Part shown: positions 5,886 to 21,692 of the stretch, piece after piece
How the letters are laid out: every line of letters begins with the position of its first letter
Position numbering within the stretch: position 1 is the first letter of the stretch
Assembly: GCA_024230435.1 (NCBI GenBank)
Contig: JAAERL010000921.1
Coordinates: forward strand, 1-39,459
Source: Desulfobacteraceae bacterium
GTDB taxonomy: Bacteria > Desulfobacterota > Desulfobacteria > Desulfobacterales > Desulfosarcinaceae
DNA length: 39,459 bases
Reading direction: 5' to 3'
Position numbers and translations under genes: made by a program
The notes under the pieces: generated by a model
The model's input: only the letters and a program-made list of their open reading frames with translations
Database searches by the model: none
Told to the model about the DNA's origin: nothing

Positions 5886-6552
5886 ATGACACATTCTGCC
5901 GCAAAGCCAGTAAATACAAAGATTCCGGTTCAACTCAACGAAAATGAGTTTGCGCAATGGTAGTGCTCCGAATGTAAGGATGAAAAATAATAAAATATTA
6001 GTGGGTTAGAAGATATATGTCTTTTTCATGATCGCATATTTTTTACTTTTTAACCGAGTTAGAATTTATGAAACCCTTTATGAAACCCTTATAGATAAAG
6101 GGCTCGAACACTTTGTTTGGCAATTTATCTTATTGAAATCAACTGGCATAAATATGGCCAAATATCCTATGTATACAAATATTTACGCCATCCTTACGTA
6201 TGGAGCACTACCCAGAAATAATTGCATCCTTTTGCCCGATAGCCTTGATAATCTTTTCCAGATCGCTCGTACCCATGGCTTCCCGTTAAAGGGGGCGATA
6301 TTTAATCTTGATGGTGTGTTTGATTCGAAAAAGAACCGGAAACAAGCGCAACCGCAAGAACGCCAAACGTGGCATCGAAAAGACTGTTTGATCAAGCTGT
6401 TCATGCTTCGCATAATGGTGGAAAGGGCATTTGCCTGGAAGGATAAGTTTAAACGGTTACTGTTTCGTTTTGAGAAAATTCAATCCCGGCATTTTACCTT
6501 CAAATTGCTGGCCTATACCATGGTAAACATGCGCCAGTTCCGCCAACCGTAG
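5886..6552 (+). pseudogene. Decayed IS5-type DDE transposase
   Basis: An N-terminal scrap at 5886 (MTHSAAKPVNTKIPVQLNENEFAQW, then stop) is followed by a longer frame carrying GAIFNLDGVFDSKKNRK, and a C-terminus VERAFAWKDKFKRLLFRFE...KLLAYTMVNMRQF typical of IS5-group transposases. Between them the family's sequence is split over three frames: NKRNRKNAKRG in one, RLFDQAVHA in the next and LRIMVERAFAW in the third. Part of the body is deleted. It is therefore an inactive relic. No intact terminal repeats were identified. Confidence 0.8.
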
Positions 6553-6866
6553 CATATTCAAGTGATAGCCCTGCAATTTGAGAAAAATCCTTGTGGATAG
6601 ATACGTTTTTCTAATTTCTACGACTGTGTTAAGTGTTTCACGTCAGACCGTCTAAATTTTTAAATTGAGTGTTCAGAAAATACTACTTTTTAATAAATTG
6701 ATGATTCGCAATCGGCTTTTGCCGTTTTTTTGAATCAAAAAACTTGCAACCAGTCAAATAACATACTTGATCGTAAGTTTAGGCGATGCCCTCAAAAAGG
6801 TTTTGGCCACCGGTATCAGCCCAAGCAGGTATAATAGAATAGATCTTCATTCCAGGTAAATCACCA
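6553..6866. other. Intergenic stretch after the transposase relic
   Basis: Noncoding and AT-rich. At about 6711-6732 CGGC-TTTT-GCCG is followed by a T-run on the plus strand and enclosed by GATTC/GAATC; it could terminate plus-strand transcription but the stem is short. No separate terminator for the phosphatase gene was recognised. Confidence 0.35.
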
Positions 6867-7604
6867 TTATGAAGTTCCATATATCTGTGCAATTACGATA
6901 GTGATATTATCTTTTCCGCCGGCTTTTTTTGCCAGTTCTACAAGGTTTGAAATGTTATTTTCCATATCGCTATTTTGGCTCAGCATCGTGCAAATGGTAT
7001 CGTCATCCACTAAGTCGGTTAATCCATCCGAGCACAACAAGAAAAGATCGCTCTTATAAACAGGACCTCTCAAGGTATCCAATGCAAGCGATGGACGCAC
7101 CCCCACGGCTCGCAGGATCACATTGCGCATACTGTGTGACCGCGCCTGTTCTTTGGTTATCAATCCTTGGTCTAACTGATCCTGGACAAGAGAATGATCT
7201 TTTGTAAGCTGCTTGAACACTCCCTGACGCAGGCGATAGGTCCGGCTGTCTCCCATGTGGCCTATGACAAAGCCCAATGTTGTAAAGACAAGCAATTCAG
7301 CTGTACATCCCATTCCCTCATGCTCCGGATGATCAGCCACATGCTCTAATATTCTTTCATTGGCCATACGGAAGGTTTTTTGGACACGATTGACTGCTTC
7401 TTGTTCTGAAGCAGCGCTTTGCCCCGCGAAAATTTCGTCTGCGGATTGGGCAAAAATCTGACTGGCAGTTTCACCGGCGGCGGCGCCGCCCATTCCATCC
7501 GCTACCAGGCAATATTTTGCGTCTGGATTAACAAGAAACGTATCTTCATTGTTTTTCCGGACCAGCCCTACATCTGTTTTTCCCCAAAATTGGATATTAT
7601 TCAT
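6867..7604 (-). CDS. PP2C-family Ser/Thr protein phosphatase (Stp/PppA/PrpC type)
   Basis: 245 aa, cytoplasmic, metal-dependent phosphatase. The metal-binding motifs are all present: NNED at 18-21, VADGMGG at 34-40, GHMGDSR at 115-121, CSDGLTD at 191-197 and GGKDNITIV at 229-237. The frame opens at TTG 7610, but ATG 7604 is the better start: it lies in ATGAATAA, overlapping the stop of the upstream kinase by 8 nt. That arrangement implies translational coupling and equal dosage, so this phosphatase almost certainly reverses the neighbouring kinase's phosphorylations. The same pairing occurs as PpkA/PppA in type VI secretion loci. Confidence 0.93.
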   Translation of the reverse strand: MNNIQFWGKTDVGLVRKNNEDTFLVNPDAKYCLVADGMGGAAAGETASQIFAQSADEIFAGQSAASEQEAVNRVQKTFRMANERILEHVADHPEHEGMGCTAELLVFTTLGFVIGHMGDSRTYRLRQGVFKQLTKDHSLVQDQLDQGLITKEQARSHSMRNVILRAVGVRPSLALDTLRGPVYKSDLFLLCSDGLTDLVDDDTICTMLSQNSDMENNISNLVELAKKAGGKDNITIVIAQIYGTS

Positions 7605-9228
7605 GATCAAAAGTCGTTCTCAAATAAGTAGATAAATTAGATTCATCATATGGACTCTGAAGCCGGCTTTTTAGTTTAACTAAGTCGTCATGCAGCATCA
7701 TAGCGTCCAGATAACGAAGTTTTTTATCCTTTTCCAAACATTTCATTACAATATCATTCAGCGCATCAGGAACATCGTTCCGCACCTTCTTAAGCGGCAC
7801 GATATCCATCTCCGGAATGGATCGAATCGCTTCAATATCGGTTTCAAAATGGTAAAGTCGGCTACCTGATAGAATTTCATAAAAAACCAATCCCAAAGCA
7901 TAGATGTCGGCTTGATGGTCCGCCTGCTTTCCAAGGGCTTGTTCGGGCGACAAATAGGATAGCTTACCTTTAATTACTCCGGCCTGTGTCAGGTTCGGCT
8001 CGGTGTTGGCTTTGGAGATGCCGTAATCGCTGATTTTTACCTCCCCCCGATAAGATATCAAAATATTCTGCGGACTGATATCCCGATGAACAATTCCAAG
8101 AAGTTTCCCGGTTTCATCATCCTTTCTTTTATGGGAATAATCAAGCCCCAAGCTTATTTTGGTAATAATAAAAATCGCCATTTGAATGGGTAATCCGGTT
8201 TGCAAGTGAGCCATAATCTGCCCAAGGTTGAGTCCATCAATGAACTCCATTGAAATGAAATAGACGTTCTGAATTTTGCCAAAATCATAAATCTGAACAA
8301 TATTTGGATGCTGAAGCAAAGCGGCCAGACGCGCCTCCCGAATGAACATTTTTATAAAATCCTGATTCTCGGCCAGGTTTGGCAAAACTTTCTTGACAAC
8401 CACAACACGCCTGAATCCGTCATCTCTAAGATAATCGGAGAGAAAAAGCTCCGCCATACCACCTTGGGCGATTTTTTCACGCAGGCGGTATGGGCCGATC
8501 TGATTTCCGTCTGAACTGATGGTCATCGGCATTGAAGATTGTTCTGAAAGTGATTTTTTCCGGCTCAGGTCCGTCAAGAAACCTCCCAAAACAAAACCCG
8601 CAGTACTTACCATCATCATCAGCACTTTGAAAAAACGGTAACGGCTAACTGTTCCGAAAACCGAATCATAGGGTACGCCGACAACAGCACTTCCAATGGC
8701 CACTGAGCTAAAGGTTATATCTTTGTAGAAAACTACAATCGCAGAGCCGGAAGCCAGTTCACCACTCGATATTATAACACTGTCAATTGATTCGAGTCTG
8801 ACTTGGCCTTCTAAAGGTTCATACATCTGGTTGATCTTCTCCGGTTCCGAGTGTGCTTTGATCCTTTGCTCATGGTTTAGGACCGTGGCAAATACAGCTC
8901 CATAATTCTTAGCGTACTCGGAGACGATGCGATTTAAATCTAAAACGTCGTCTTCAAGCAAAGCAGTTCCGCTTTGGTCGGCCAGCCGGTTTGCAGTAGT
9001 CACGCCGAAGGTAATGGCTTTTTGTTGATCATTGCTGGAAGTTGAATTTAAAATGTATAATCCTGCTATGTTGATAATTATCCAAAAAACAAACAATATG
9101 AACAGGCTTTTTTTGTTTCGCTTTAAGAATTCAATACGATCCAAATTTCTATTTAAATTACAAAAAGTTGTTGTCGTCATCTGCTTGAGCCAGATCTTGG
9201 CAGGTGATATTTTTTGGTCTACAGTCAT
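7597..9228 (-). CDS. Membrane receptor Ser/Thr protein kinase with periplasmic sensor domain
   Basis: 543 aa. TM1 is about 41-60, a periplasmic domain about 61-198 (Cache/CHASE-like size, not identified) and TM2 about 201-218. The kinase domain (244-520) is C-terminal and cytoplasmic, the reverse of the usual PknB order. Kinase motifs: glycine loop EKIAQGGMAELFL, VVVVKK (K279/K280), REAR Glu298, HRDISPQN (D383, N388), DYG 401-403 in place of DFG, and a SPEQ site at 427-430. All catalytic residues are present, so it should be active. GGGGAC precedes ATG 9228. It lies divergent from the LysM/FHA/sheath operon; the double-FHA protein there is a natural phospho-reader for it. Confidence 0.93.
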   Translation of the reverse strand: MTVDQKISPAKIWLKQMTTTTFCNLNRNLDRIEFLKRNKKSLFILFVFWIIINIAGLYILNSTSSNDQQKAITFGVTTANRLADQSGTALLEDDVLDLNRIVSEYAKNYGAVFATVLNHEQRIKAHSEPEKINQMYEPLEGQVRLESIDSVIISSGELASGSAIVVFYKDITFSSVAIGSAVVGVPYDSVFGTVSRYRFFKVLMMMVSTAGFVLGGFLTDLSRKKSLSEQSSMPMTISSDGNQIGPYRLREKIAQGGMAELFLSDYLRDDGFRRVVVVKKVLPNLAENQDFIKMFIREARLAALLQHPNIVQIYDFGKIQNVYFISMEFIDGLNLGQIMAHLQTGLPIQMAIFIITKISLGLDYSHKRKDDETGKLLGIVHRDISPQNILISYRGEVKISDYGISKANTEPNLTQAGVIKGKLSYLSPEQALGKQADHQADIYALGLVFYEILSGSRLYHFETDIEAIRSIPEMDIVPLKKVRNDVPDALNDIVMKCLEKDKKLRYLDAMMLHDDLVKLKSRLQSPYDESNLSTYLRTTFDHE

Positions 9229-9675
9229 AGCATAGTCCCCTGATCGTTCCTCATATCCGCGTATTCATAGCAATAAGCCAAAATTGCCGGCAGTCTACCC
9301 GGTTTCAGATCATTTTAGTAAAGGAAATTGAGTCGAAAAAACTGCGCCTGTCATGATAATAGCAAGTAAATTATGTTCCCAAACAGTCGCAAAGTGGTTT
9401 TAAGATAAAATTAGATAGGTTGTCAATATATAGCAAGCTAATTTTATCCGCCTGCGTATCTTTTAATTTTCATCTTTCACAGTTCAATATTTTAATAATA
9501 TTGCACAACTAAGCCGATTGTGGTATTGGCATAAATTCAGGATTTGGGATTTCGTTCAAATTGAAAAGACTTAGAGTAGACCTTGATTGCTGGATATACT
9601 GCGGTTGCCCCGGAGTCTTTTTTCAATGGCTTTGCAGGGTATGGAATCCGGCACAAATTATTTCGGAAAGGTAAG
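9229..9675. other. Divergent regulatory region, kinase versus LysM/FHA/sheath operon
   Basis: About 450 bp between the two oppositely transcribed units. It is AT-rich and contains a 19-bp palindrome (9485-9503). No further gene is supported: the first 93 nt of the open frame beginning at 9583 lack a signal peptide and are treated as untranslated. Confidence 0.5.
9485..9503. promoter_or_regulatory. Palindrome, candidate operator
   Basis: CAATATT and AATATTG are perfect inverted 7-mers separated by TTAAT. It is located in the middle of the divergent intergenic region, where a dimeric regulator could act on both transcripts. No regulator gene is nearby, and an AT-rich palindrome of this size can occur by chance. 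Confidence 0.3.
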
Positions 9676-10692
9676 TTGAAAAAAAATCGTAGATTGAAAA
9701 AATTGGCTGCCGTGATTTTAGGCTCCCTGCTGATGTATTTAAATGGATGCGTCGCTATCAACAAGGTGGAATTAATATCTGGGCATTCAAAACCGTTTCG
9801 ATCCGAAGACTATATCATATACAGGCTTTTGCCCCAGGACAGCCCGGCATCTTTGGCCCAAAAATTTTTTGGAGATTCGAAAAAAGCCTGGATTATTGAA
9901 GACGCCAATGAAAAACATGATTTTGTTACCGGTCAATATATTGTAATCCCCTTGGTGCTGAGAGGTAAAGGAGGAATTTCATCAGAAGGTGTACAGTCTA
10001 TACCTATATTATGTTATCACCGTTTTGGGAATAACTGCGAATCGCCTTTGTGTGTCTCTAAAGACCTTTTCGATCAGCAGATGAAATTTTTGAAAACGAA
10101 CGGATATCGCGTCATAACACCCGAGGACTTGCTTGCTTACCTGGAGCATCGGCAGCTCGTTCCCAAAAATGCTGTAATGATTACATGCGATGACGGCTAT
10201 CGTTCATTTTATACTATTGCTTTCCCAATTTTGAAAAAGTATGGTTTCACGGCCACTATGTTCGTATATACGGATTTTGTCGGAGTTTCAGATAAAGCCA
10301 TTTCATGGGATGAATTAAGGGATTTGAAAGCCCACGGTTTTACCATCGGTTCTCACACGGTAGCACATAGTGATCTGACAAAAAAAGATGACAATGAAAG
10401 TGACGAGGCCTATAAGCGCAGACTCCGGCGTGAGATTTTCAACTCCAAACATCTCATTGACATAAAACTCAATCAGGAAACACTTTTTTTCGCCTACCCC
10501 TTTGGCAGGGCGAATATTGAATCAATGTCCATGGTCAGGCAAGCAGGATACAAAATGGCGGTTACAGTCCAGCGAGGCGCAAATCCATTTTTTGCAAATC
10601 CATATATGCTTCGCAGAGATCAAGTTCTAAAAAAAGATATGAATATCTTCAAATCAAGATTGAAAACATTTTATCCTTTACCCCTTAGGTGA
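9676..10692 (+). CDS. LysM lipoprotein with polysaccharide deacetylase (NodB) domain
   Basis: 338 aa from TTG 9676, chosen because a GGAAAGG-type Shine-Dalgarno lies just upstream and the protein then begins with a proper lipoprotein signal ending YLNGC (C25 lipidated). The open frame extends to ATG 9583. One LysM-like module is at 46-92 (YIIYRLLPQDSPASLAQKF). The NodB deacetylase domain is at about 110-310: TCDDGY (D172, D173), SHTVAH (H227, H231) and the YPFG strand at 274-277. These give a carbohydrate N-deacetylase, anchored to the envelope and bound to peptidoglycan or GlcNAc polymer. Four nt separate it from the next gene. A role on PNAG or peptidoglycan is inferred from the neighbouring pga operon. 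Confidence 0.88.
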   Translation: MKKNRRLKKLAAVILGSLLMYLNGCVAINKVELISGHSKPFRSEDYIIYRLLPQDSPASLAQKFFGDSKKAWIIEDANEKHDFVTGQYIVIPLVLRGKGGISSEGVQSIPILCYHRFGNNCESPLCVSKDLFDQQMKFLKTNGYRVITPEDLLAYLEHRQLVPKNAVMITCDDGYRSFYTIAFPILKKYGFTATMFVYTDFVGVSDKAISWDELRDLKAHGFTIGSHTVAHSDLTKKDDNESDEAYKRRLRREIFNSKHLIDIKLNQETLFFAYPFGRANIESMSMVRQAGYKMAVTVQRGANPFFANPYMLRRDQVLKKDMNIFKSRLKTFYPLPLR

Positions 10693-10696
10693 GAAC

Positions 10697-12343
10697 ATGA
10701 AAAAAAAAATGTATCGAAGACTCATAAATCTTATCCTCACGGTCTGTTTGATAAGCGCTTGTGTGCCCGCCGGGCAAAAAACCATGAAAACCGATCCTGA
10801 GCTAACCGCCGAATATTTAACCCAGGCCGGTCAGTTTGAAAAAAAAGGTGAATTACCTGAAGCTTTAGAGCATTATAAGCTTGCCTTAACCGTAGACCCT
10901 AAAAACGCCATAGCCGCTCAAAAAAAATCGGAATTAACAAAAAAGCTCAGTCAGATGTCCCAAGAGCGCTATAAACTCGGGATGAAGTATCACCGTCAGG
11001 GAAAATACGGTCTTGCACGCAAGCAGTTTCTAACGGCACTCAAATTCAATCCTGACCATGAAGCCTCATCCCGTATGCTTGTCTCCCGGCAACCCGAAAA
11101 AACAACAAATTATGTCTACCACATTATTCAACCCGGAGAAAATCTGTCTTATATTGCCAAAAAATACTATGGGGATTTTCGGAAATTCGATGCTATCGCC
11201 CACTTTAATAATCTTGACGATGTAACGAAAATCAAGCCAGGCCAACGCATCATGATTCCGGAGATTTCAAAGGGTTCATTGACTGTAATTTCCCCCAAGG
11301 AACAGGAAAAATCGGCCTTTGTCTGGCATAAGATTAAACCCGGTGAAAGCATAAGCAAATTGGCGCAAGCTTATTACGGTGACTACAAACTCTTTCATGC
11401 CATTGCGCAATTCAATAATATGGATGATGCAACCCAGGTGTCGGTTGGCCAAAAAATAAAAATACCCCGTTTAATTGGTTTACCCTTCAATCAGCCTGGT
11501 AAAATTGGGCCCGTTGAGCAAAAACTGCCAGTCATTGCAGAGCAAGAACAGCCAGAACCGGAACAGACAAACGGGGCCCTAGAATTGCCCGAGGAGCCGT
11601 TAGCGTTTGAACCGATAAATAATGAACAGGCTTTAGCCTATCGTGATTCCGGGATCGAATTTTATAACAATGGAAAATATGAAGACGCCATTTTTGATTT
11701 AATCAAAGCCGTTGAGGCATCTCCCGAGGATGAACAAACACGCCATTATTTGGCCCTTGCATATTTTGAATCCGGCAAGCAGTTATTTTCTGAAAAATAC
11801 TTTGAGGCTGCGAGGGAAGCTTTTGAGAGTGCTCAGCAATATAATCCGGATTGCGAACAATGCGAAGCCTATGTTGAAAAAAGCCGTTTCGGCCCGTTTC
11901 TGGCAAACCGGTCCAAAGGAATTGAATATTTTAATAAAAACGAATTTCAATCGGCCATTTATGAATTCGAATCTTTTCTGCAAAAGCGCCCGGAAGACGA
12001 AGAGATTCGAAATTTTATGAGTAAAGCTTACTTTCAAAACGCATTGCTGATTTACAATACAGGTGATTTTCTTGCAGCGAAAAATGGTTTCGATTTAGCT
12101 TTGCAGTATGATAAGCAATGCGCAAGATGTAAAACTTATATCGATCAAAGCATGGACAGTTTCAAGGAATCACATTACAATAAAGGAGTTATTTCCTTTG
12201 GCAAAGAGCAACTTGCAAAGGCAATTGACGAATGGCAAATGGTTTATCAAATCGATCCAGATTATAAGGATGTCGTTTCAAACCTGAAAAAGGCCCGTTC
12301 GTTGCACGAAAGGCTTGAACGAATAAAAAAAAGTCAACAATAA
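10697..12343 (+). CDS. LysM and TPR repeat lipoprotein
   Basis: 548 aa. Lipoprotein signal with ISAC (C22). N-terminal TPRs at about 36-125, two LysM modules at about 139-188 and 208-257 (PGENLSYIAKKYYGD and PGESISKLAQAYYGD), a Pro/Glu-rich linker at 260-310, then further TPR-like repeats from about 315 to 540, two with CxxC (NPDCEQC, DKQCARC) at equivalent places. It probably tethers peptidoglycan to protein partners as a scaffold. It starts 4 nt after the deacetylase, with the Shine-Dalgarno inside the preceding stop region, so it belongs to the same operon. Confidence 0.85.
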   Translation: MKKKMYRRLINLILTVCLISACVPAGQKTMKTDPELTAEYLTQAGQFEKKGELPEALEHYKLALTVDPKNAIAAQKKSELTKKLSQMSQERYKLGMKYHRQGKYGLARKQFLTALKFNPDHEASSRMLVSRQPEKTTNYVYHIIQPGENLSYIAKKYYGDFRKFDAIAHFNNLDDVTKIKPGQRIMIPEISKGSLTVISPKEQEKSAFVWHKIKPGESISKLAQAYYGDYKLFHAIAQFNNMDDATQVSVGQKIKIPRLIGLPFNQPGKIGPVEQKLPVIAEQEQPEPEQTNGALELPEEPLAFEPINNEQALAYRDSGIEFYNNGKYEDAIFDLIKAVEASPEDEQTRHYLALAYFESGKQLFSEKYFEAAREAFESAQQYNPDCEQCEAYVEKSRFGPFLANRSKGIEYFNKNEFQSAIYEFESFLQKRPEDEEIRNFMSKAYFQNALLIYNTGDFLAAKNGFDLALQYDKQCARCKTYIDQSMDSFKESHYNKGVISFGKEQLAKAIDEWQMVYQIDPDYKDVVSNLKKARSLHERLERIKKSQQ

Positions 12344-12358
12344 CTAATAGTGAACGTT

Positions 12359-13336
12359 ATGACAACAATCCACACCATTAACATCCAATTGATTCATATT
12401 TTTGGACCGCTTAAAGGCGAAATTCAAACCTTTAGCGACCCCGAAATAAAAATCGGCCGCCATCCTGATTGCCAAGTTCAGTTTCCAAAGGAAATATTGA
12501 CCCTGTCGCGCATTCACACACGCATCGTTAGAGAAGGTAATCGTTTCAGATTGATAGACCAGAGTACAAATGGAAGTTTTGTAAATGGCCAGCGGGTTAC
12601 CGATACTTTCCTAAAGGAAGGAGACGTTATCATGTTTGCTGAAGGCGGTCCAAAAGTCAGTTTTCTGACTGAAATCGTTGAATCGGATGTGTCCGGCACA
12701 TTGGCGTCTCCTGCTTTGCCGCAACAACCCGAGCCTCCAATTCAAACGCCTGCAACACCATCGCAACCTATAGTTGCGCCCCAGGCTGCTTCGATTCCAG
12801 CCCCGGCGCCCGATTCTTCCTCAACGCCTTCTATGGATTCAGCACCTTCGGTTCAGCCTCCCGGCCAACATCAGCAACAAGGTGTTGAAGCCCGAACTGT
12901 AAATGTTCCCCTTGCAATTCAATATGGTTCAACGCTCAAATCATTTAAAACCTTGCCGGTTACACTCGGCAAAAGCGAACTATGTGATTTTACCATTAAT
13001 CATTCCGCCCTGAATGATCAGCATGCCCAAATATTTTTCGACCATGAAAAATATTGGATAAAAGATCTTACCGGCGCCTATTCAATTTTAGTAAACGGCT
13101 CTCCAATTCATCCTCAAGCCTGCCTTGAACCGGATTCCCAGATATCTCTAACAGATCAAGGCCCTATGCTTAAATTCTTAGCCGGTGGAAGGCTTGCTGA
13201 AATTGAAAATACAACCAGTCAACCGGTTGCTGAACCACAAGATACAGATGCACCGGAATCTTCCCCGGCAGATAATATGCCTGATAACCTGGGGCAAAAA
13301 GCCGGATCACTATTTAAAAATTTTTTTAAAAAATAA
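12359..13336 (+). CDS. Double FHA-domain protein
   Basis: 325 aa from ATG 12359 (an in-frame GTG lies at 12350). FHA-1 at about residues 10-100 keeps the phosphothreonine-binding set: GRHPDC, SRIHTRI and STNGSFVNG. A Pro/Ala/Gln-rich linker follows (about 115-170). FHA-2 at about 175-265 is recognisable (VTLGKSELCDFTINH...LNDQHAQI...VNGSPI) but lacks the GR and SRxH residues, so it is probably structural. The C-terminus is short and basic. Cytoplasmic. It is the expected reader of Thr phosphorylated by the divergent kinase, comparable to Fha1 in type VI secretion. Confidence 0.9.
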   Translation: MTTIHTINIQLIHIFGPLKGEIQTFSDPEIKIGRHPDCQVQFPKEILTLSRIHTRIVREGNRFRLIDQSTNGSFVNGQRVTDTFLKEGDVIMFAEGGPKVSFLTEIVESDVSGTLASPALPQQPEPPIQTPATPSQPIVAPQAASIPAPAPDSSSTPSMDSAPSVQPPGQHQQQGVEARTVNVPLAIQYGSTLKSFKTLPVTLGKSELCDFTINHSALNDQHAQIFFDHEKYWIKDLTGAYSILVNGSPIHPQACLEPDSQISLTDQGPMLKFLAGGRLAEIENTTSQPVAEPQDTDAPESSPADNMPDNLGQKAGSLFKNFFKK

Positions 13337-13378
13337 AAGTTTTATAAAAACAGGAGGCGGCGCTTTAACCTCAAGCTA

Positions 13379-14983
13379 ATGGCCGAGGGTCTTATGCGCC
13401 GGTATTTTTTCATGAGCATTCCCAAACCGGACTTTAAAATTCTTGCCTTAGGCCCCTTTACTATGGATTCGGCTAACGTGTGGAATCAAAAACCCATTAC
13501 CGTAGACCGATTAAGCCTGGATGCGATCATTGAGAGACTAAATATAAAGTTCTTTCTTGAACTAAATCAAGATCTGTCTCCGCAAGGCGGCACTCATGTA
13601 CATATAAAATCCTTTAAATCTTTGCACCCCGATGGGATTGTACAAACACAGCCATATTTCAAGCAGCTTAGTGAAGCTGAGAGTTATATTGACCAGGCAC
13701 TGAAAAAAGGTATTTCATATAGCCGGATCAATCAAAAGATGTCTCAATGGCATCTTCTGCCCTCGCCCCTATTGCCTGCCGAACAGCCGGCTAAAACACA
13801 AACGGGTGCATCGGAGCCATCTGTTTCCCTGAAAAATATATTAAACATGGTTGCTTTGTCTGATCATAAAAAGATCAGCAAACCCGGTATCAAGAATCCC
13901 GCTGCCGCCTTGAAGCAAAGAGCATTATCGGCTTTGTTTGAATTGGCGGAATTTAAAAATATGGAGGCTGCCTGGCGTGGATTGCGCCTTCTTTTGCAAC
14001 AGGGAATAAGCAAAGATAATATCAAGGTGCAAATTGCTGCATTTCATCCTGAAACCATGCAAGAGGCAATGCATTCCCTGACTCCCGAGCTGCTTAAAGA
14101 TACGCCTAATGTTATTTTAGCCGATCTTGCCTTTGGCAACTCAGCGCTTTGCATGGAACGTCTTGCCCAATTGGCCCAATGGGCGGAAACATTAATGGCG
14201 CCAATCATCACATGGTTTTCAGCAGATTTTTTTCAGATAGAAACTTGGAATCAACTGTCCAGCCTTTCTTTTATTCCAAACCACATTCAAAGCCCTGAAT
14301 ATGCAAAATTCAGAAAGATACAGGAGTCATCTGCAGGCCGATGGTTATGTGCGGCCGGTAACCGTTTTTTGATACGCTACCCCTATGGTAAGGACAATCC
14401 CGCCCGCCATGTGAATTTTACGGAAACCGGGCATTTATGGGCGCCGCCGGTTTGGGCGGCCGGTACACTTATTGCGAAAAGTGTATGTCATACAGGATGG
14501 CCCACCTGTTTGAGTGACCGTAATCGTTTTATGATAGAGGACTTAGCCCTTTTCAATTCCGGGGAACAAAGCCTTCAGGTCGTTGAAAGCCACCTTACTC
14601 ACGACCGGCTCGATCAAATGGCAAGAGCAGGCTTATCCTTCCTGTCTGCCGAAAAAGGAAGGGACAAAGCATATTTGCCAAAAGCTGTGACAGTGTCAAA
14701 AGACTCATTGGCTTATCAATTGTTCACAAGTCAAATTATCCGGTTTGTTTTGTGGTGCAAAGATTATCTGCCCGCAGAGGATAGCCCTGCCGCTTTGCAA
14801 ACCCAACTCAAATTGGCGTTTCAGGTCTATAATGAGCAAAGCCATCCTCAAGCATTTGAATCGGTTGAAGTTTCAACCATTCAAAATGAGGATGACAAGA
14901 CAATCACTGTTAAATTTAGCATCATCGCTTCATCTTCGCTCATTGGAAACCGTCGCCCCATAGAATTTTCGTTGAGATGGTAA
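13379..14983 (+). CDS. TssB-TssC-like fused type VI sheath protein
   Basis: 534 aa. Residues about 15-115 resemble TssB/VipA (PDFKILALGPF, ITVDRLSLDAIIERL, KSFKSLHPDGIV). After a Pro-rich linker, 150-534 resemble TssC/VipB: ALFELAEFKNMEAAWRGLRLLL, the central FSADFF segment, the LWAPPVWAAGTLIAKS..TGWPT box, and a C-terminal strand IEFSLRW. Family knowledge: TssB and TssC are separate in normal type VI systems and build the contractile sheath; here they are one compact chain. Start uncertain: ATG 13379, or ATG 13394 after GAGGG; AGGAGG at 13352-13357 is too far from either. It is last in the LysM/FHA operon. No tube, baseplate, ClpV or membrane-complex gene is in the window. Confidence 0.75.
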   Translation: MAEGLMRRYFFMSIPKPDFKILALGPFTMDSANVWNQKPITVDRLSLDAIIERLNIKFFLELNQDLSPQGGTHVHIKSFKSLHPDGIVQTQPYFKQLSEAESYIDQALKKGISYSRINQKMSQWHLLPSPLLPAEQPAKTQTGASEPSVSLKNILNMVALSDHKKISKPGIKNPAAALKQRALSALFELAEFKNMEAAWRGLRLLLQQGISKDNIKVQIAAFHPETMQEAMHSLTPELLKDTPNVILADLAFGNSALCMERLAQLAQWAETLMAPIITWFSADFFQIETWNQLSSLSFIPNHIQSPEYAKFRKIQESSAGRWLCAAGNRFLIRYPYGKDNPARHVNFTETGHLWAPPVWAAGTLIAKSVCHTGWPTCLSDRNRFMIEDLALFNSGEQSLQVVESHLTHDRLDQMARAGLSFLSAEKGRDKAYLPKAVTVSKDSLAYQLFTSQIIRFVLWCKDYLPAEDSPAALQTQLKLAFQVYNEQSHPQAFESVEVSTIQNEDDKTITVKFSIIASSSLIGNRRPIEFSLRW

Positions 14984-14993
14984 GCGAGCGTGT

Positions 14994-15055
14994 TTAGGCG
15001 ATTGGCGAAAAAAAAGACAAACAAGATGGTATATTATTTGTCAGAAATCGCCTTA
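14994..15055 (+). repeat. Short inverted-end repeat, copy 4 (internal-deletion form)
   Basis: A 60-bp version keeping both ends: TTTAGGCGATTGGCGAAAAA on the left, and ACAAGATGGTATATT plus AAATCGCCTTA on the right. The middle 115 bp of the full element are missing. It lies between convergent tssBC-like and pgaD. Its right end is read as the final codons and stop of pgaD on the minus strand. Confidence 0.85.
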
Positions 15056-15477
15056 ATATCATTGTAGAGTTTGTCCCAGAGAATTTCTTTTTTATTTTTC
15101 AAGGAGCGGGCTTCATCTTCACTAACAGAAAAACGAGAAGCCAGTTTTGCAATAGGCAAGGTTGAATGATTAATTCTTCTGTTTTTTTTTCCAAAAACAA
15201 AATAGTTGTAATAGCCCCATCCCCTCAACAGGATAAAAACAATTACAACAACCCAGCACATATTAATACACAACTGCATAAGCTTTATCAGCGTTGCCTC
15301 CTTGAAAATGAAAATATAAACATAGTGCGAACCTGAGAGCCAGACGGCAAGACTCACCAAAGGAAGAAAAAGATATATCCACAGAACCCACATTGCTGTA
15401 GTGAAACTGAATTCAGCCCCGTTGCGCATAAAACTTCGCAAATCAGGATTATTTTCAATATGAATATGGTTTTTCAT
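15034..15477 (-). CDS. pgaD: PgaD-like PNAG synthase accessory membrane protein
   Basis: 147 aa from ATG 15477, preferred over the upstream open frame because AAAAGGT lies in front and the extension overlaps pgaC in another frame. Two hydrophobic segments at about 28-50 and 70-90, followed by RGWGYYNYFVFGKKNRR and a soluble tail: the PgaD layout. With PgaC it forms the c-di-GMP-responsive inner-membrane synthase in enterobacteria. It is last gene of the pga operon. The last ~7 residues and the stop codon fall in repeat copy 4, so its natural C-terminus may have been replaced. Confidence 0.8.
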   Translation of the reverse strand: MKNHIHIENNPDLRSFMRNGAEFSFTTAMWVLWIYLFLPLVSLAVWLSGSHYVYIFIFKEATLIKLMQLCINMCWVVVIVFILLRGWGYYNYFVFGKKNRRINHSTLPIAKLASRFSVSEDEARSLKNKKEILWDKLYNDIKAISDK

Positions 15478-15505
15478 AACATAAATACCTTTTAAGTAAT
15501 AGTAA

Positions 15506-16792
15506 TTATGGGCTTTTTTGCCCCTTAAGCCGATTTTTTTCCCGTCCGAGGCTTTGCAAACCGCGATCCGGACTTTTCCATACCGCACGAACGCCTTTTT
15601 TCTTAAACATCGCTTTAGGCGTTGCAAACAGAACTGTTAAAGAGCTTAACATCCAATATAAAAACGGATACCAAATCACCCAGAATAAATACCTGAAAAT
15701 GCCTTTTTCATAACTTCGATCCACATAAAGACTCACAAAAAATTGCATTACACAACTAAGCGCGAGAATAGAGCCGGTCCATTGAGGGGGCAACGGCGGC
15801 TGTGGTTTAACACCTAATGCCAAGTGAAAGACCCCGGTCATGACCCACAAGATAAACATCGCCCAGAAACAATAGGACCATACAACACTCACGGCACTTT
15901 CAAAAAACACCGGCCAAAGACGGCGCTGGCGCCAATGTTTCCAAATATCTTTATGCTTTTTCAATACTTCCACACCACCCTGGGACCAGCGCATTCTCTG
16001 ACGCCAAAGCCCTTTCAACGTCTCGGGAACATACACCCAGCATGTGGCGCTCGGTTCATAGCGCACATCCCAGAATTTTTTTTCAAGCTTCCAGGTAATG
16101 TCTATATCCTCAGTCACCATATCGGTATCCCAGTACCCGGCTGAGTGTAGCGCTGTTTTACGAAAGGCCGCCAGAACGCCGGAAACGGTTAATACTTTGC
16201 CAATCAGGCGCTGTGTCCGTTTGATGAGTCCAATAATCGTTGTATATTCGCCTGTTTGTATTTTACCAAGTAAACTGGTCCGGTTAATAATCCGCGGATT
16301 CCCCGTAACAGCGCCTACCCTCGGATATTTGACGAAGTGCGGTGCAATCCATCGTAATGCATCCGGACTCACAAGGGCATCCGCATCAATGGTAAGTAAA
16401 AGCTCTCCTTTTGATACTAAGACGCCAATATTTAAAGCGGCTGCTTTACCCTGGTTTTCCTTAAAATACACTCCGCGTATATTTTCGTGTTCTTTGCATA
16501 AGTCTTTAATAAGTTGTGCTGTTGAGTCAGTACTTCCATCGTCTATGATAATAATCTCATATTTGTGATAATTTAGAATGAGTAATTGTTCGATGGTGCG
16601 TTGAATTTGATCCTGTTCATTATGACAAGGAATCAAAATAGAAAAAAAAGGAAATTCCTTCAATTCCGGCGGAGATTCATTTTTCCGTTCATAGCGCCAG
16701 AAAAACACTATTCCCCCTACCATCCAAACAACACTCATAAGCAACGGATAAAGGTAAATGAAATTATTAATGTGTTGAAATAGTTTTACCAT
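15506..16792 (-). CDS. pgaC: PNAG synthase, family 2 glycosyltransferase
   Basis: 428 aa from ATG 16792 (GCAGGG upstream; the open frame continues to 16876 into pgaB). Polymerises UDP-GlcNAc to poly-beta-1,6-GlcNAc at the inner membrane. TM near 12-32; the GT2 domain has DDGSTDS (D84, D85), DADAL (D136, D138), TEDID (228-232) and the processivity motif QRMRW (265-269). C-terminal TM helices are at about 285-400. Gap to pgaB 29 bp. All catalytic residues are intact. Confidence 0.95.
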   Translation of the reverse strand: MVKLFQHINNFIYLYPLLMSVVWMVGGIVFFWRYERKNESPPELKEFPFFSILIPCHNEQDQIQRTIEQLLILNYHKYEIIIIDDGSTDSTAQLIKDLCKEHENIRGVYFKENQGKAAALNIGVLVSKGELLLTIDADALVSPDALRWIAPHFVKYPRVGAVTGNPRIINRTSLLGKIQTGEYTTIIGLIKRTQRLIGKVLTVSGVLAAFRKTALHSAGYWDTDMVTEDIDITWKLEKKFWDVRYEPSATCWVYVPETLKGLWRQRMRWSQGGVEVLKKHKDIWKHWRQRRLWPVFFESAVSVVWSYCFWAMFILWVMTGVFHLALGVKPQPPLPPQWTGSILALSCVMQFFVSLYVDRSYEKGIFRYLFWVIWYPFLYWMLSSLTVLFATPKAMFKKKGVRAVWKSPDRGLQSLGREKNRLKGQKSP

Positions 16793-16821
16793 AATCAACC
16801 CTGCCCTGATTGATCTGCATA

Positions 16822-18762
16822 TTAGTTCGCAGACATTTCCATTCGAATTATATCTGCGGCTGGTTTCTGTTCCCAAAAATTATCCGGGTAATACGCTAAA
16901 TGCATGATACCCGATCCTAAAACCGAACGTATTTGCTGAACAAGAAGACGATCATCAATCCATTGTTTTCGCCTAGGGTTATATGCCTGAAGTTTAAAAA
17001 CAGTTTTCTGCTTTGCCAATGGATTCTCCAAAGTCTTGCTTGATAGATTTTTTAGCCATCTTTCAGGTTTAGCAACCTGTTCCATGCCTGGATAAGCCAT
17101 GATCACCACATAGTCATAATTTTTTAAAAACTGATCATAGTCCTGGGAAAAACGTACCTGGGTATTGTCAGAACCCGGTAAAGCCGGATACAAGTTCCGC
17201 GCGAACAAAGCATCAGGCCTGTATTTTCGAACCGAATCGGCCATCTTTTCCGTAAAAGAAAACAGCTCTGGGGTTTTAAACTTCGCCCATTGCTCATTGA
17301 AAACGGGATCTGATGAAAAGACAAACTCCTTGCCGGTCTGTTTTTTTAAAGCCTTGAACCCAAGACGTTGGTGATCTTCCCATTTGGTCAAGTAAACGTT
17401 GTCTTGAAATAATATTCCACTTATCTTCGTTCTGGCTGCCAAATCCTCATAAAGCATGGCTACACGTCCAGTTGCTTTTTCGCTCAAAGGCGCCGGCGCT
17501 TTGCAGCGCGATGAGTTTTGCTGAACCTTGCCGCCTTCGGATTTCATAACGCGCAGCCGATTATTAAAGTCTTGATACTGAAAAACAATGCCCGGCGCCG
17601 GCATACAGGCAAAAACGTTGATTTGCCTGATAGAAATCTGGTTTACTACATGTCCCAAAATATCCGCCCTGACAGGCATCACACGGTTTTGAAAATAAAC
17701 ATATTGTATATCTCCGGTGTCTTCGGCATCCGAAAAAGCTTGCAAGAAAACAGTGTTCACTCCAATTTGAACCATGCGGTCGATGAGTTTGCCTAAATTT
17801 TCATCGGTCTTTTTTTCAGAATCAGGATTAAAAACTAAATCCAGGTCAACCTGCATAGCGCGTATAGGGGCCCGGAGAACCTTTAACTTTTTTATGTTTC
17901 TAATAAAAGAAGTGATGGGATAATTTGATATCAGCAGCCGGTTAATCTTCGCACCTTCTTTAAGCCGGGCTGGACCGAAGTCATTCTCATCCAGTGAAAA
18001 CTGATAGTTTACACCACGATTCCGGGCAACCTGCATGCTGATTTTAGTATAGTAACCATAAGGCCAGACTATGGCTTCAGGTGCTTTGCCAATGTGCCTG
18101 ACAAACAATTTTTCCTGGCGTTGAAAATCCAGTTCAAGCTTTCGGCGGTATTCTTTTTCAGTCTCATAGCGTTTCTGATTTGCCAAATAGCCCCGCACCG
18201 CAACAACAGGCGCAACATTTCCCTGAGGCGTATATTGCCGTGTTTTATGCAGATCATATGAATGCGACACCACTGTAACAAGCGGATTGTTGGCCAACTG
18301 CCTGATTTGCCTCCACGTCATCAATTTTTCCGGAACATCCTCAGGAGGTTTTTTTTCAACCCATGCGCCAACGATAGCTACCATGGAAGGATAACCGTAT
18401 TGCTTTAATATGGGCACAACAAAATCATAATAAGAGAGATATCCATCGTCAAAACTTAACAGCACAGGTTTTGAAGGCAACTCTTTTACTCCTTGGGAAG
18501 CTTTTGCCAAATCCTGAAATGAAATCGGATGATACCCATGTGTCCGCAGATACTCGATCTGCTCCACAAACCGTTTTTGGGAGAGTGTATCGCTATGTTT
18601 TTTTCCCGGTTTCACCTGGGGTTGGATGCTATGATAGCAAAGCACCAAAACGGTGCTGCCTGGAAATTCCTCGGCAACAGCTCCGGCTTGCGGCAAGCAT
18701 ATCATGCTATATGCGATAATAGTACAAATGGTATAAAAGATTAAACAACCGTGCTTTGTCAT
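16822..18762 (-). CDS. pgaB: PNAG N-deacetylase/glycoside hydrolase
   Basis: 646 aa from ATG 18762. GGAGG is 7 nt upstream and the start overlaps the pgaA stop as TAATG, so the two are coupled. Signal peptide about 1-30; the end IICLPQAGAVA looks like a cleavable rather than lipobox site, unlike E. coli PgaB. NodB deacetylase domain about 36-260: SFDDGY (D105, D106), SHSYDLH (H167, H172) and WPYG. The C-terminal GH153-like domain, about 290-640, has QVDLDLVF, GILFQDN (acid/base Asp region) and YVVIMAYPGME. It partly deacetylates PNAG in the periplasm, which is needed for export. Confidence 0.95.
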   Translation of the reverse strand: MTKHGCLIFYTICTIIAYSMICLPQAGAVAEEFPGSTVLVLCYHSIQPQVKPGKKHSDTLSQKRFVEQIEYLRTHGYHPISFQDLAKASQGVKELPSKPVLLSFDDGYLSYYDFVVPILKQYGYPSMVAIVGAWVEKKPPEDVPEKLMTWRQIRQLANNPLVTVVSHSYDLHKTRQYTPQGNVAPVVAVRGYLANQKRYETEKEYRRKLELDFQRQEKLFVRHIGKAPEAIVWPYGYYTKISMQVARNRGVNYQFSLDENDFGPARLKEGAKINRLLISNYPITSFIRNIKKLKVLRAPIRAMQVDLDLVFNPDSEKKTDENLGKLIDRMVQIGVNTVFLQAFSDAEDTGDIQYVYFQNRVMPVRADILGHVVNQISIRQINVFACMPAPGIVFQYQDFNNRLRVMKSEGGKVQQNSSRCKAPAPLSEKATGRVAMLYEDLAARTKISGILFQDNVYLTKWEDHQRLGFKALKKQTGKEFVFSSDPVFNEQWAKFKTPELFSFTEKMADSVRKYRPDALFARNLYPALPGSDNTQVRFSQDYDQFLKNYDYVVIMAYPGMEQVAKPERWLKNLSSKTLENPLAKQKTVFKLQAYNPRRKQWIDDRLLVQQIRSVLGSGIMHLAYYPDNFWEQKPAADIIRMEMSAN

Positions 18763-21692
18763 TAAAACCTCCACACGAAAAACAAATCACACGTGATATC
18801 TTTGACTTCTTGCCCATCATAGATATCACGGCCGCCGGTAACCCCTGCTTGCAATAAATGCCTTTTGGAAAATTCATGTGTTTGTTCATACCGTAAGGCT
18901 CCGGTCAAATGGCCGGCATACCCGAATTGTTTGTAGTTACCAACGGTCAAATAGAGTCTGTGAACGAATGCTCGCCCATGAGTACGCCAAACGGTTTGCT
19001 CGGTCATATGAGTAGCAGATAGGCTCAATGCCTTTTCCGGGTTGAAATAAAGTGTTTGATCACCTTTAGAGTTTCGCACCGTATACAGATCCAGAAAAAG
19101 CCGCATTCTCCAGTCATGCTTGGCCCATAAATTTTGTTGATAATTAAGAGTCAGCTCGTTGCGCTGATTGTCATCAGAAAAACGGCTATGAGCAGCACTT
19201 GCTCCGGCTTGCCGCCATTCGCTTTGCCGCCAAACAGCCTCTAATTGCATTTTTTTTGCCTGTATACCTTCAATTCTGGCGAGCTTGGAGACATCAGTAG
19301 AATAAGAATCGCCAAAAGCTGCAAACGTCCAGTGATCCGAAGGTGTATAAACCACCTCGGTTGTGCTGCCCCAGTCCTTTCCATCATTATAATTGGCAGA
19401 TACGGTTTGACGCAGCTTCCAATCGGCATTGAAAATATGATCTATGCCGATGCCGATTCGTTTGAAGTAAGCGCTTGTGTCATCATCGGGCAAATTTTGC
19501 TTATCATGCCAAATACGCCGATGCAGCAAATAGGTAAATAGACGTGTTTTCAATGACAAAGGTGTGGATAATTCCTGACGTATGCTCAACTCGTAAGTCT
19601 TATCATCTTCTCTTTGCCAATAAACGTTTGTTACCGATTCATTCATCTGCTCGATTTTTAAATCCTCTAAAACCTGTTTCAGATGAATATCTCCCGGTCG
19701 CTCGATTAAATATAGTTTCACCTCATCGCGGGAGCGCTTTTTATAAACCAAATCATTCAGCGCCATAATTTTTCCCGGTTGCGCCGGTTGATAGTCATTA
19801 TCCCTGGTTTCTATAATATCGAAGGCTTCCTTGGCTGACCGGTACCAGCCGCGCCACATTTTTACGTGAGCCAGTGCGTTACGCACTTCCAGATTTGCCG
19901 GGGATTTGGCATGCAGAGACTGGAAATACCGATATGAATCCCGAAGACGATTTTGATGGGCCAAGTACCAGCCTTTGACAACTAAAAGATCAAATAATTC
20001 CGGGTTCAGTTTCCCGGACGTGTCTTTTTTTATGCTTTTGGATGTTTCCGCAATAAGATCTTCGAGCAATGCATCGGCTTGTTTCCAGCGCCTGAGGTCT
20101 TGCAAGGCGTAAAACTTGCCCATACGCGCTTCAACGTATCCGGGCTGTTCTTTTAAAACTTCATCATACACTTCCAGCGCTTTTTCCGGTTGCCCAACAG
20201 CCTGATAGGAACCGGCGATAATGTTTTTCAACCATGCCGGCGCATCGCCTTGAGCATTGGCATCCATTTTCTCAAATTGTGCAATTACCTGACTGTGACG
20301 CCCATCCTGGGACAAAGCCATAATATAGTCATAATAATACCGCGGGTTTTTTGTAGTTGACGCTAATTGCTGCAGTGCATCTATGGCTTTTACGTTTTCA
20401 TTCCACTTAAGCAAATTAATAGCCTGGTCCCTTTGCAGACTATTCGCCATGTTTTGATTCCCGGGCAGTTGTTTAGAAGCCATTTCATTTGCCAGATAAG
20501 ATGCGCCCATATCCGAATAAGCCTGCAACTGCAATTTCTTTGCGATGTCATTGGCCGGATTTTTTTTCAAAATGAGGCCGTACTGCTGAATTGCTTGCCA
20601 GAAAAGCCCCTGCTTTTCTAGGACATGCGCACGGGCAAAGGGTAATTCGGGGTGCCCGGAATCAATTTTTGAAATATAATCAATTTGAGCATTGGCTTGT
20701 GGGTACTTCTCCATGGCGGCCAAGCAGTAAACTCGCCCTAAGGCGGGCTGTATGCAGGTATCATCCTTTTTTAAAAGACTATCAAACAAGGCCATTGCCT
20801 GAGTTACGCACCCGGTTTTATAATACGCCCAACCAATCCAATACAAATTCTGATCACAGACTTTATCGGAATCGAGTCCTGAGGACTCGTAAAAAGTTAC
20901 GGCGCTGGAGTAATTTTTTATCAAAACCAGGCACAAAATATACTGCTCTTTTATAAACGCGTCACCAGCCGATAGCTTCGTTTTCAAGGAATTTAAGCAC
21001 TTTTGTTTCTGCTTGAAAGAACTGCCTGAAATCATATCATCACGATAACTCGCGATTTTTACTGCTTTATCAGGCGCGTTAGTAATCATAGCATCGTAGA
21101 ACTTTAGAGATTTGAGGTGCTTTTCTTGCAGAAAAAATAATTTGCCTTTAAGCAGTTTTAATTCTAAAGGCAAACGATGCTGTGCTTGAAACTGCTGCAA
21201 CGCAGTTTGAGCTTTGTCAAAGGCGTCCAAATGGATAAAACAATTTGTCAGTCCCGTTAAAGCAATATGATCCGCAGGGTCGATACTGATTGTCTTTTGA
21301 TATAAATCCGTCGCTTTTTCGTAAGACTCTAAATCGAAGTAAGCTTTTGCCATGTTGCGCAAAAGATAACTTCGCCGTGGGATTTTCGCCGGTAAAGATT
21401 CAAATCGCCTGACGGCTTCGGTGTAGTTTCCTGACCAGACCAAAACAGCCAAATAGTCTGAGTAAAGAGACGGAAATATTTCAGGATAATCGATGTAGGG
21501 TTTCATCAATTCCAGTGCCTGCGCGAATTCACCATTTTTGATATGGTGGTTAATTTCATCACGTCCCTGTAATTGACCCGCAAAAGGTTGATTGCTAACA
21601 GCCTGGATGATAATAATTACAGCAATCAGGCATGTGGCTTGAAGAACAGACAAACAAAAGCAGAATAATTTATTTTTTTCATCAAAAATCAT
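18762..21692 (-). CDS. pgaA: PNAG export outer-membrane porin with TPR superhelix
   Basis: 976 aa from ATG 21692, chosen for the AAGGAG at 21697-21702; the longer frame to 21728 lacks a signal peptide at its start. N-terminal hydrophobic segment (about 9-32), then roughly 600 residues of TPRs in the periplasm, then a beta-barrel of about 300 residues ending FFVWRF, with the terminal aromatic typical of outer-membrane proteins. Exports deacetylated PNAG. First gene of pgaABCD. A heavily structured stretch precedes it (21876-21993). Confidence 0.93.
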   Translation of the reverse strand: MIFDEKNKLFCFCLSVLQATCLIAVIIIIQAVSNQPFAGQLQGRDEINHHIKNGEFAQALELMKPYIDYPEIFPSLYSDYLAVLVWSGNYTEAVRRFESLPAKIPRRSYLLRNMAKAYFDLESYEKATDLYQKTISIDPADHIALTGLTNCFIHLDAFDKAQTALQQFQAQHRLPLELKLLKGKLFFLQEKHLKSLKFYDAMITNAPDKAVKIASYRDDMISGSSFKQKQKCLNSLKTKLSAGDAFIKEQYILCLVLIKNYSSAVTFYESSGLDSDKVCDQNLYWIGWAYYKTGCVTQAMALFDSLLKKDDTCIQPALGRVYCLAAMEKYPQANAQIDYISKIDSGHPELPFARAHVLEKQGLFWQAIQQYGLILKKNPANDIAKKLQLQAYSDMGASYLANEMASKQLPGNQNMANSLQRDQAINLLKWNENVKAIDALQQLASTTKNPRYYYDYIMALSQDGRHSQVIAQFEKMDANAQGDAPAWLKNIIAGSYQAVGQPEKALEVYDEVLKEQPGYVEARMGKFYALQDLRRWKQADALLEDLIAETSKSIKKDTSGKLNPELFDLLVVKGWYLAHQNRLRDSYRYFQSLHAKSPANLEVRNALAHVKMWRGWYRSAKEAFDIIETRDNDYQPAQPGKIMALNDLVYKKRSRDEVKLYLIERPGDIHLKQVLEDLKIEQMNESVTNVYWQREDDKTYELSIRQELSTPLSLKTRLFTYLLHRRIWHDKQNLPDDDTSAYFKRIGIGIDHIFNADWKLRQTVSANYNDGKDWGSTTEVVYTPSDHWTFAAFGDSYSTDVSKLARIEGIQAKKMQLEAVWRQSEWRQAGASAAHSRFSDDNQRNELTLNYQQNLWAKHDWRMRLFLDLYTVRNSKGDQTLYFNPEKALSLSATHMTEQTVWRTHGRAFVHRLYLTVGNYKQFGYAGHLTGALRYEQTHEFSKRHLLQAGVTGGRDIYDGQEVKDITCDLFFVWRF

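What the first reader, a model, noticed from the sequence alone, without database searches (positions are those of the whole stretch)
6867..14983. Kinase-phosphatase-FHA switch coupled to a lone TssB-TssC-like fusion and LysM lipoproteins
Seen: a divergent pair of operons encodes a receptor Ser/Thr kinase and overlapping PP2C phosphatase on one side, and a LysM-deacetylase, LysM-TPR lipoprotein, double-FHA protein and sheath-like fusion on the other. Known: PpkA/PppA/Fha control type VI secretion by threonine phosphorylation. Unusual: no tube (Hcp), spike, baseplate, ClpV or TssJLM gene is present, and two peptidoglycan-binding lipoproteins take their place. This could be a reduced, phospho-gated sheath-like envelope device, not described to my knowledge.
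Basis: partly seen in the sequence, partly recalled or inferred. Interest (0 to 1): 0.85.

Follow-up and report, generated by a model that had tools for sequence, protein, structure and literature searches.

The report
Phospho-switch with one-piece sheath-like protein
A kinase-phosphatase-FHA gene set is paired with a one-piece relative of the bacterial harpoon (type VI) sheath that lacks one of the arms sheath subunits use to grip each other; it looks like an accessory controller of the ordinary type VI harpoon found elsewhere in the same genome, not a separate machine.

Summary
In detail: six genes, divergent layout and domains as described. The sheath-like gene is not lone: the genome carries a near-complete type VI secretion system on contig C283, with VgrG elsewhere. 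I count the fusion in 17 of 394 other same-phylum genomes: all 17 have TssF, 15 have TssK, against 28 of 377 without the fusion. In 8 of 17 it lies within 60 kb of TssC or beside T6SS genes; two homologues sit inside T6SS clusters. The usual core is PP2C diverging from FHA-fusion; sensor and LysM genes vary. The fusion has the sheath fold and a gp25-like handshake domain, lacks the TssB N-terminal donor arm in 24 of 24 homologues, and keeps a linker motif resembling the ClpV-binding helix. Best reading: a phospho-controlled T6SS accessory module with an arm-less sheath-like subunit; whether that subunit caps, seeds or tethers the sheath is inferred. No description found in the papers searched. 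New variant of a known kind.

The parts
6867..7610 (-). PP2C Ser/Thr phosphatase (Stp1/IreP type), catalytic metal-site motifs present
   Evidence: homologue divergent from FHA-fusion in 18 of 28 loci
7597..9228 (-). Receptor Ser/Thr kinase with sCache-like extracytoplasmic region; HRD, D(F/Y)G and the VxxK lysine present
9583..10692 (+). Lipoprotein polysaccharide deacetylase (PgaB/IcaB-like catalytic domain, LysM-like N-terminus by eye)
   Evidence: present near the fusion in 9 of 30 loci
10697..12343 (+). Lipoprotein with TPR repeats and two LysM domains
   Evidence: variable part of the module
12350..13336 (+). Two-FHA protein: FHA1 with intact phosphothreonine-site residues, proline-rich linker, degenerate FHA2, basic C-terminal tail
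12446..12637 (+). FHA1 domain (G-R, S, H, N conserved in 19 of 19 aligned homologues)
12959..13150 (+). FHA2 domain, degenerate at the phosphothreonine site
13412..14983 (+).
13433..13690 (+). TssB/VipA-like part; begins at about VipA residue 28, so the N-terminal donor arm is absent
13823..13861 (+). Conserved linker motif (SLKNILNMVALSD here; about [VLI]DxILxMVxLP in the family), resembles the ClpV-recognition helix of TssC
   Evidence: ClpV link is inference
14675..14980 (+). C-terminal handshake-type domain (gp25-like), placed by homology with the L040 model
5900..6860 (.). Repeated mobile-element-like DNA (52 matches in the genome, this place included) abutting the phosphatase gene, where 11 of 30 loci carry a trypsin-like gene next to PP2C

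Best explanation
This is an accessory control module of the T6SS encoded elsewhere in the genome. Proposed working: an envelope signal sensed by the kinase's extracytoplasmic region changes threonine phosphorylation in the cytoplasm, and PP2C reverses it. FHA1 of the two-FHA protein reads the phosphothreonine. The FHA protein partners the co-encoded sheath-like fusion. The fusion is a pre-joined TssB-TssC mimic that keeps the sheath core and the handshake domain but lacks the N-terminal arm with which TssB grips the neighbouring protofilament. It could therefore join or touch a growing sheath at an end without forming a closed tube alone, so its likeliest job is to seed, cap or tether the TssBC sheath under phospho-control, and ClpV may strip it off through the linker motif. 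The LysM lipoproteins and deacetylase, where present, would prepare or mark the peptidoglycan at the site. Shown here: gene set, conservation, T6SS co-occurrence and linkage, sheath fold, absent arm, FHA1 and enzyme motifs. Inferred: every interaction and the cap, seed or tether role.
For: T6SS on C283 of the same genome and VgrG genes elsewhere. Fusion in 17 of 394 other phylum genomes by my reading: 15 of 17 with TssK versus 28 of 377 without the fusion, Fisher p 3.6e-14; TssF in 26 of 26 genomes tested, which include these 17. Same contig within 60 kb of TssC in 7 of 17, and beside TssE-F-G-H and VgrG in an eighth, G234. Homologues inside T6SS clusters in L099 (G234) and L100 (G099). FHA upstream in 23 of 28 loci, divergent PP2C in 18 of 28. 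FHA1 site conserved 19 of 19. Sheath fold: profile match to TssC and TssB chains, VIA Z 15.8-17.5 to nine T6SS sheath chains, next best 12.9. Arm absent 24 of 24. No FHA gene found on C283, although TagF, which acts through Fha in other bacteria (PMC5995506, abstract), is there.
Against: No interaction, phosphorylation or secretion data. In the own genome the module and the T6SS are on different contigs, distance unknown. T6SS genomes often lack the fusion (28 TssK-positive non-carriers; three of them, G327, G356 and G422, have a divergent fusion and G180 a broken fragment), so it is not a core part. The FHA protein lacks the TagH C-terminal domain and scores below the TagH cut-off. In L049, L051, L052, L099 and L100 no FHA gene was found just upstream, so the FHA partnership is not universal. 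Nine of 24 fusions leave room in frame for a longer N-terminus, with possible earlier starts in four (window, L049, L085, L088), though the conserved Met argues against it. Co-occurrence counts treat related genomes as independent, and one search scored at most three candidates per genome, so carriers may be missed. The AlphaFold models are moderate (mean pLDDT 63 and 71), and three of the nine VIA rows to T6SS chains have rmsd over 24 (domain placement not reproduced).
Confidence: 0.6

Rival explanations
1. The fusion is a T6SS spike/effector-loading or baseplate-side part (a special first sheath ring around VgrG); the phospho-switch is a secondary partner gained in this lineage.
For: In L099 the order is TssH-fusion-VgrG; L051 has VgrG next door, and L041 and L090 have VgrG and DUF2169 genes within about 10 kb. 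A separate fused clade in Phaeobacter and Leisingera T6SS also lies next to vgrG, downstream of tssH in Phaeobacter.
Against: 23 of 28 loci pair the fusion with FHA rather than VgrG; the vgrG-side position could just be drift within clusters.
Confidence: 0.2
2. The module is T6SS-independent: a sheath-fold protein reused as a scaffold in an envelope-stress phospho-signalling pathway with LysM lipoproteins.
For: In the window and some relatives the neighbours are envelope genes (LysM, deacetylase, trypsin-like protease), and the T6SS cluster is on another contig.
Against: All 26 genomes tested, carriers included, have TssF; linkage to T6SS; the linker motif and handshake domain are kept.
Confidence: 0.12
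3. One reading: a reduced, stand-alone, phospho-gated sheath-like envelope device.
For: No T6SS structural gene other than the fusion among the window proteins scanned; the gene set is conserved.
Against: T6SS present in the genome and in all tested carriers; without the N-terminal arm the fusion is unlikely to build a closed tube by itself (PMC5807055 passages).
Confidence: 0.05

Closest known systems
T6SS threonine phosphorylation pathway (PpkA, PppA, Fha/TagH, with TagF)
   Same: Membrane kinase, PP2C phosphatase, FHA protein with intact phosphothreonine site; TagF present in the T6SS cluster of the same genome
   Different: Encoded away from the T6SS cluster; FHA protein lacks the TagH C-terminal domain; paired with a sheath-like fusion; sensor genes vary between relatives
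TssB/TssC (VipA/VipB) contractile sheath
   Same: Fold and sequence of both subunits, handshake-type C-terminal domain
   Different: One polypeptide; no TssB N-terminal donor arm; below both TIGR cut-offs; the genome has ordinary TssB and TssC besides
Agrobacterium TssC40/ImpD, a second TssC-like protein essential for Hcp secretion (PMC3702570, section 6 and passages)
   Same: Extra, non-redundant sheath-like paralogue beside an ordinary TssC
   Different: The Rhizobium phaseoli ImpD-like protein used here as stand-in (identified by position and similarity only) begins in the TssC part, is not a TssB-TssC fusion and falls on the canonical TssC side of the tree
Fused sheath-like genes next to vgrG in Phaeobacter/Leisingera T6SS
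   Same: TssB-TssC-like fusion, linked to VgrG and TagH
   Different: Separate clade; the Phaeobacter protein has an N-terminal extension and an acidic C-terminal tail; annotated only as 'contractile sheath large subunit'
Single-chain sheaths of eCIS, R-pyocin and phage tails
   Same: TssB-like and TssC-like halves in one chain (VIA Z up to 12.9)
   Different: Those alignments start at chain residue 20-36 against model residue 1-9, so their N-terminal arm has no counterpart; the T6SS TssC chains score higher

Membership tests
T6SS sheath TssB/TssC | Sequence homology to TssC N-terminal sheath domain (PF05943) | tested here: met
   95.7 bits vs 27 cut-off; hhalign to TssC probability 99.9
T6SS sheath TssB/TssC | Curated equivalog cut-offs TIGR03355 (TssC) and TIGR03358 (TssB) | tested here: not met
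   82.6 vs 271.5 and 19.1 vs 97.25 bits
T6SS sheath TssB/TssC | TssB N-terminal donor arm for the inter-protofilament handshake | tested here: not met
   6-19 residues before the core strand in 24 of 24 (the window row read by eye, the script's pattern missed it), against 29 in four TssB; 15 of 24 have at most 12 further in-frame codons before a stop; VipA match starts at residue 28
T6SS sheath TssB/TssC | C-terminal handshake domain | tested here: met
   Model residues 421-522 match T4 gp25, Z 8.0, rmsd 3.0, 89 aligned (this Z alone is near the level of chance matches); hhalign runs to the TssC C-terminus
T6SS sheath TssB/TssC | ClpV-recognition helix | tested here: inconclusive
   Conserved linker motif at the equivalent place: pattern found in 23 of 24, the 24th (L037) by eye; binding not tested
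T6SS sheath TssB/TssC | Builds a contractile tube | not testable with these tools
   needs purification and microscopy
T6SS threonine phosphorylation pathway | Membrane Ser/Thr kinase and PP2C phosphatase with intact catalytic motifs | tested here: met
T6SS threonine phosphorylation pathway | FHA domain with intact phosphothreonine site | tested here: met
   FHA1 G-R, S, H and N in 19 of 19 aligned homologues (a 20th, L103, was left out of the alignment)
T6SS threonine phosphorylation pathway | TagH/Fha family (TIGR03354 cut-off; T6SS_FHA_C domain) | tested here: not met
   65 vs 120.25 bits; no T6SS_FHA_C in the FHA protein, none in G000 at E 0.001
T6SS threonine phosphorylation pathway | Acts on a T6SS component in the same cell | not testable with these tools
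   T6SS present; action not shown
Stand-alone device without T6SS | Genome lacks other tss genes | tested here: not met
TssC40/ImpD second TssC | TssC-type protein without TssB part, grouped with TssC | tested here: not met
   Fusion has a TssB part; the ImpD-like row groups with canonical TssC, SH-aLRT 95 (long branch, columns include the TssB part)

The most novel reading that the evidence does not exclude
A phosphorylation-gated, arm-less, one-piece sheath subunit acts directly on the T6SS sheath (end cap, seed or tether): control of a contractile injection machine at the sheath itself, through a dedicated pseudo-sheath protein handled by an FHA reader.
Probability: 0.3. Interest if true: 0.8.

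Novelty: new variant of a known kind. Interest (0 to 1): 0.58.

Why it matters
Known threonine-phosphorylation control of the T6SS acts through Fha and, in Agrobacterium, the membrane part TssL (PMC3953482, PMC5995506, abstracts). A conserved module that couples the same kind of switch to a sheath-fold protein points to regulation at the sheath. The missing donor arm gives a sharp, testable prediction: such a subunit should join a sheath end but not build a tube.

Tried and rejected
Stand-alone reduced device: rejected as the leading reading once C283 and one search showed T6SS in the same genome and in all tested carriers. Two phylum carriers (G374, G234) had no TssK; both have TssF, and G234's contig also carries TssE, TssG and ClpV (TssH) beside the fusion.

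Phage or plasmid origin: no relative in viral contigs (pattern scan, not exhaustive). In plasmids (377 records matched; 70 rows listed, some twice), the rows that carry an annotation are T6SS sheath genes, among them the Phaeobacter/Leisingera fused proteins; many rows have none. The Vibrio hit H10 proved to be separate TssB and TssC genes in one frame, not a fusion.

Functional replacement of TagH: the three full-length T6SS_FHA_C matches (G199, G204, G225) among 50 genomes examined (19 with any match) are in genomes without the fusion; too few to prove exclusion. Shorter, weaker matches lie in genomes with and without the fusion.

Other FHA genes of the genome: the one about 4 kb from a VgrG on C138 is an FHA-GAF-histidine kinase, not a T6SS Fha. 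The FHA genes on C162, C1044, C750 and C1052 were not examined.

PADLOC: the kinase matches kinase models of defence systems and PP2C one weak model, the other four proteins none; no defence reading followed up.

Link to the neighbouring pgaABCD genes: no ORF in the loci had a Pga protein as its best listed match, so treated as chance neighbours.

First AlphaFold model had a poor middle; refolded with L040 first (better). Phylogeny is a quick tree with long branches; its split between fusions and TssC is aided by columns of the TssB part that TssC lacks.

Literature: no paper found on a natural TssB-TssC fusion or this module (open-licence PubMed Central only, word search). Papers seen: PMC5807055, PMC5048182 (passages); PMC3702570 (passages and section 6); PMC5995506, PMC3953482 (outline and abstract); the rest as search listings only.
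Full report
Observation. The six genes are present as described: PP2C 6867-7610(-), receptor kinase 7597-9228(-), deacetylase 9583-10692(+), LysM-TPR protein 10697-12343(+), two-FHA protein 12350-13336(+), sheath-like fusion to 14983(+). Kinase and phosphatase overlap by 14 bases, and the gaps between the first three plus-strand genes are 4 and 6 bases. The conserved start of the fusion is Met12 of the reported ORF, at 13412.

The genome is not without a T6SS. G000 has 6.13 Mb in 1238 contigs and the window is all of contig C920. A second TssC lies on contig C283, in a cluster TssJ-K-L-M-TagF-A-B-C-Hcp-E-F-G-H. VgrG genes lie on other contigs. No FHA gene was found on C283.

Spread. Four of 59 relatives besides the own genome carry a fusion orthologue (G012, G014, G016, G042), and all four also show a second, canonical TssC match there. 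In 395 phylum genomes including the own, 43 have a match at 1e-10, canonical TssC included; by score and by the part matched I count the fusion in 17 besides the own: G388, G410, G198, G374, G313, G271, G292, G189, G104, G066, G386, G241, G234, G151, G099, G365, G401. G401 is in two pieces on two contigs, the first with stops; G151 and G365 are partial. I left out G180 (a fragment with a stop) and the divergent matches in G327, G356 and G422. That search scored at most three candidates per genome, so the count is a lower bound. TssK is in 44 of 395 genomes, own included: 15 of the 17 carriers and 28 of the other 377, Fisher p 3.6e-14, not corrected for relatedness. TssF is in 26 of 26 genomes given, which are own, the four relatives, the 17 carriers, G180, G327, G356 and G422; in G410 it is a partial match. 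I did not run TssF on non-carriers. So in this sample the fusion occurs only with a T6SS, while a T6SS often occurs without it: an accessory pattern. The 13 loci found in named genome records are all from metagenome-assembled genomes, mostly titled Deltaproteobacteria, Desulfobacteraceae, Desulfobacterales or Syntrophaceae (a pattern scan, not exhaustive). That the window itself is from this group is inference.

Linkage. In 7 of the 17 carriers the fusion lies on the same contig within 60 kb of the canonical TssC (G388, G386, G241, G099, G104, G066, G189). G386/G241 and G104/G066 are pairs from one genus. In G234 it lies between TssH and VgrG, and in G099 within the T6SS cluster near TssJ-K-L-M. 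In G012 the distance is about 79 kb. In the other carriers the two genes are on different contigs or the canonical TssC was not matched, so distance is unknown.

Module. Over 30 loci scanned, 28 have more than 1.5 kb upstream of the fusion (L043 and L108 do not). An FHA gene starts 0.8-1.3 kb upstream on the same strand in 23 of 28, and a divergent PP2C lies further upstream in 18 of 28. No FHA upstream: L049, L051, L052, L099, L100. The deacetylase is near in 9 of 30 and the trypsin-like gene in 11 of 30. Two kinds of kinase occur: with an sCache-like region (window, with homologues over most of the length in L037 and L045) and a shorter kind, with a PEGA domain in L047. The usual core is thus phosphatase-FHA-fusion with exchangeable sensors.

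FHA protein. FHA1 keeps G-R, S, H and N in 19 of 19 aligned homologues; FHA2 is degenerate. A short basic tail, often FKK-like, ends 16 of the 19 by eye (L041, L042 and L045 lack it). It falls short of the TagH cut-off and has no T6SS_FHA_C domain.

The fusion. Profile search of solved structures hits TssC and TssB chains. Foldseek ranks seven T6SS sheath chains first with the poorer model. VIA-align on the better model gives Z 15.8-17.5 to nine T6SS sheath chains (rmsd 2.9-3.6 in six, over 24 in three), 12.9 at most to single-chain sheaths, and 8.0 to T4 gp25 for the C-terminal domain. In the T6SS sheath the TssB N-terminal strand and the TssC C-terminal strand are donated to neighbours, the former between protofilaments (PMC5807055, passages). 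The fusion lacks that N-terminal arm: 6-19 residues precede the core strand in 24 of 24 fusions against 29 in four TssB, and 15 of 24 have at most 12 in-frame codons before an upstream stop; the other nine have room for more, but share the conserved Met. Between the two halves, in a stretch of low model confidence, a short motif is conserved (pattern in 23 of 24, the last by eye). It resembles the helix near the N-terminus of TssC, CLLDDIVTATKL in C283, which ClpV binds in other bacteria (PMC5048182, passages). That likeness is suggestive, not tested.

Relatives. Fused sheath-like genes next to vgrG in Phaeobacter and Leisingera T6SS form a separate clade with those of G327, G356 and G422. Agrobacterium has a second TssC (TssC40/ImpD) that is essential for Hcp secretion, while TssB and TssC41 still accumulate in its absence (PMC3702570, section 6 and passages): a precedent for extra sheath-like parts with their own role.

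Mechanism. The simplest account is a T6SS accessory phospho-switch whose output is a sheath-like subunit unable to close a tube by itself. Capping, seeding or tethering the sheath are all possible, and I rank none as shown. TagF on C283 belongs to a family that works through Fha in Agrobacterium and Pseudomonas (PMC5995506, abstract); with no FHA gene found on C283, the window FHA protein is a candidate partner, which is inference.

Verdict. Observation confirmed, stand-alone device not supported, phospho-switch analogy supported. New variant of a known kind; the fusion's function is the open and interesting part.

Noticed in passing
window 15034-21728: pgaDCBA-type operon (poly-GlcNAc synthesis and export) ends 50 bases from the fusion gene, convergent with it; the module's deacetylase is itself PgaB/IcaB-like, below those families' cut-offs.
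   Followed up: partly
window 5900-6860: Mobile-element-like DNA with 52 matches in the genome (this place included) abuts the phosphatase gene; the trypsin-like gene found next to PP2C in several relatives is missing, with only distant homologues elsewhere in the genome.
   Followed up: partly
L004 18261-18983: 240-aa protein after TssJ with no Pfam match; its homologue in G189 (43% identity) and same-placed proteins in other T6SS clusters match the TagH C-terminal domain weakly in frames of about 240-270 aa: perhaps a TagH without its FHA half.
   Followed up: partly
L103 1-3713 (G422): A divergent fused sheath-like gene overlaps an FHA gene, with a homologue of the window FHA protein (41% identity) beside it on the other strand.
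   Followed up: no
L118 12330-17843 (contig C138): 1837-aa VgrG with a long C-terminal extension and a weak VasX_N match; perhaps a cargo-bearing VgrG of the same genome.
   Followed up: no
window 36607-37101: Short ORF with the start of an IS240-type transposase domain (DDE_Tnp_IS240).
   Followed up: no
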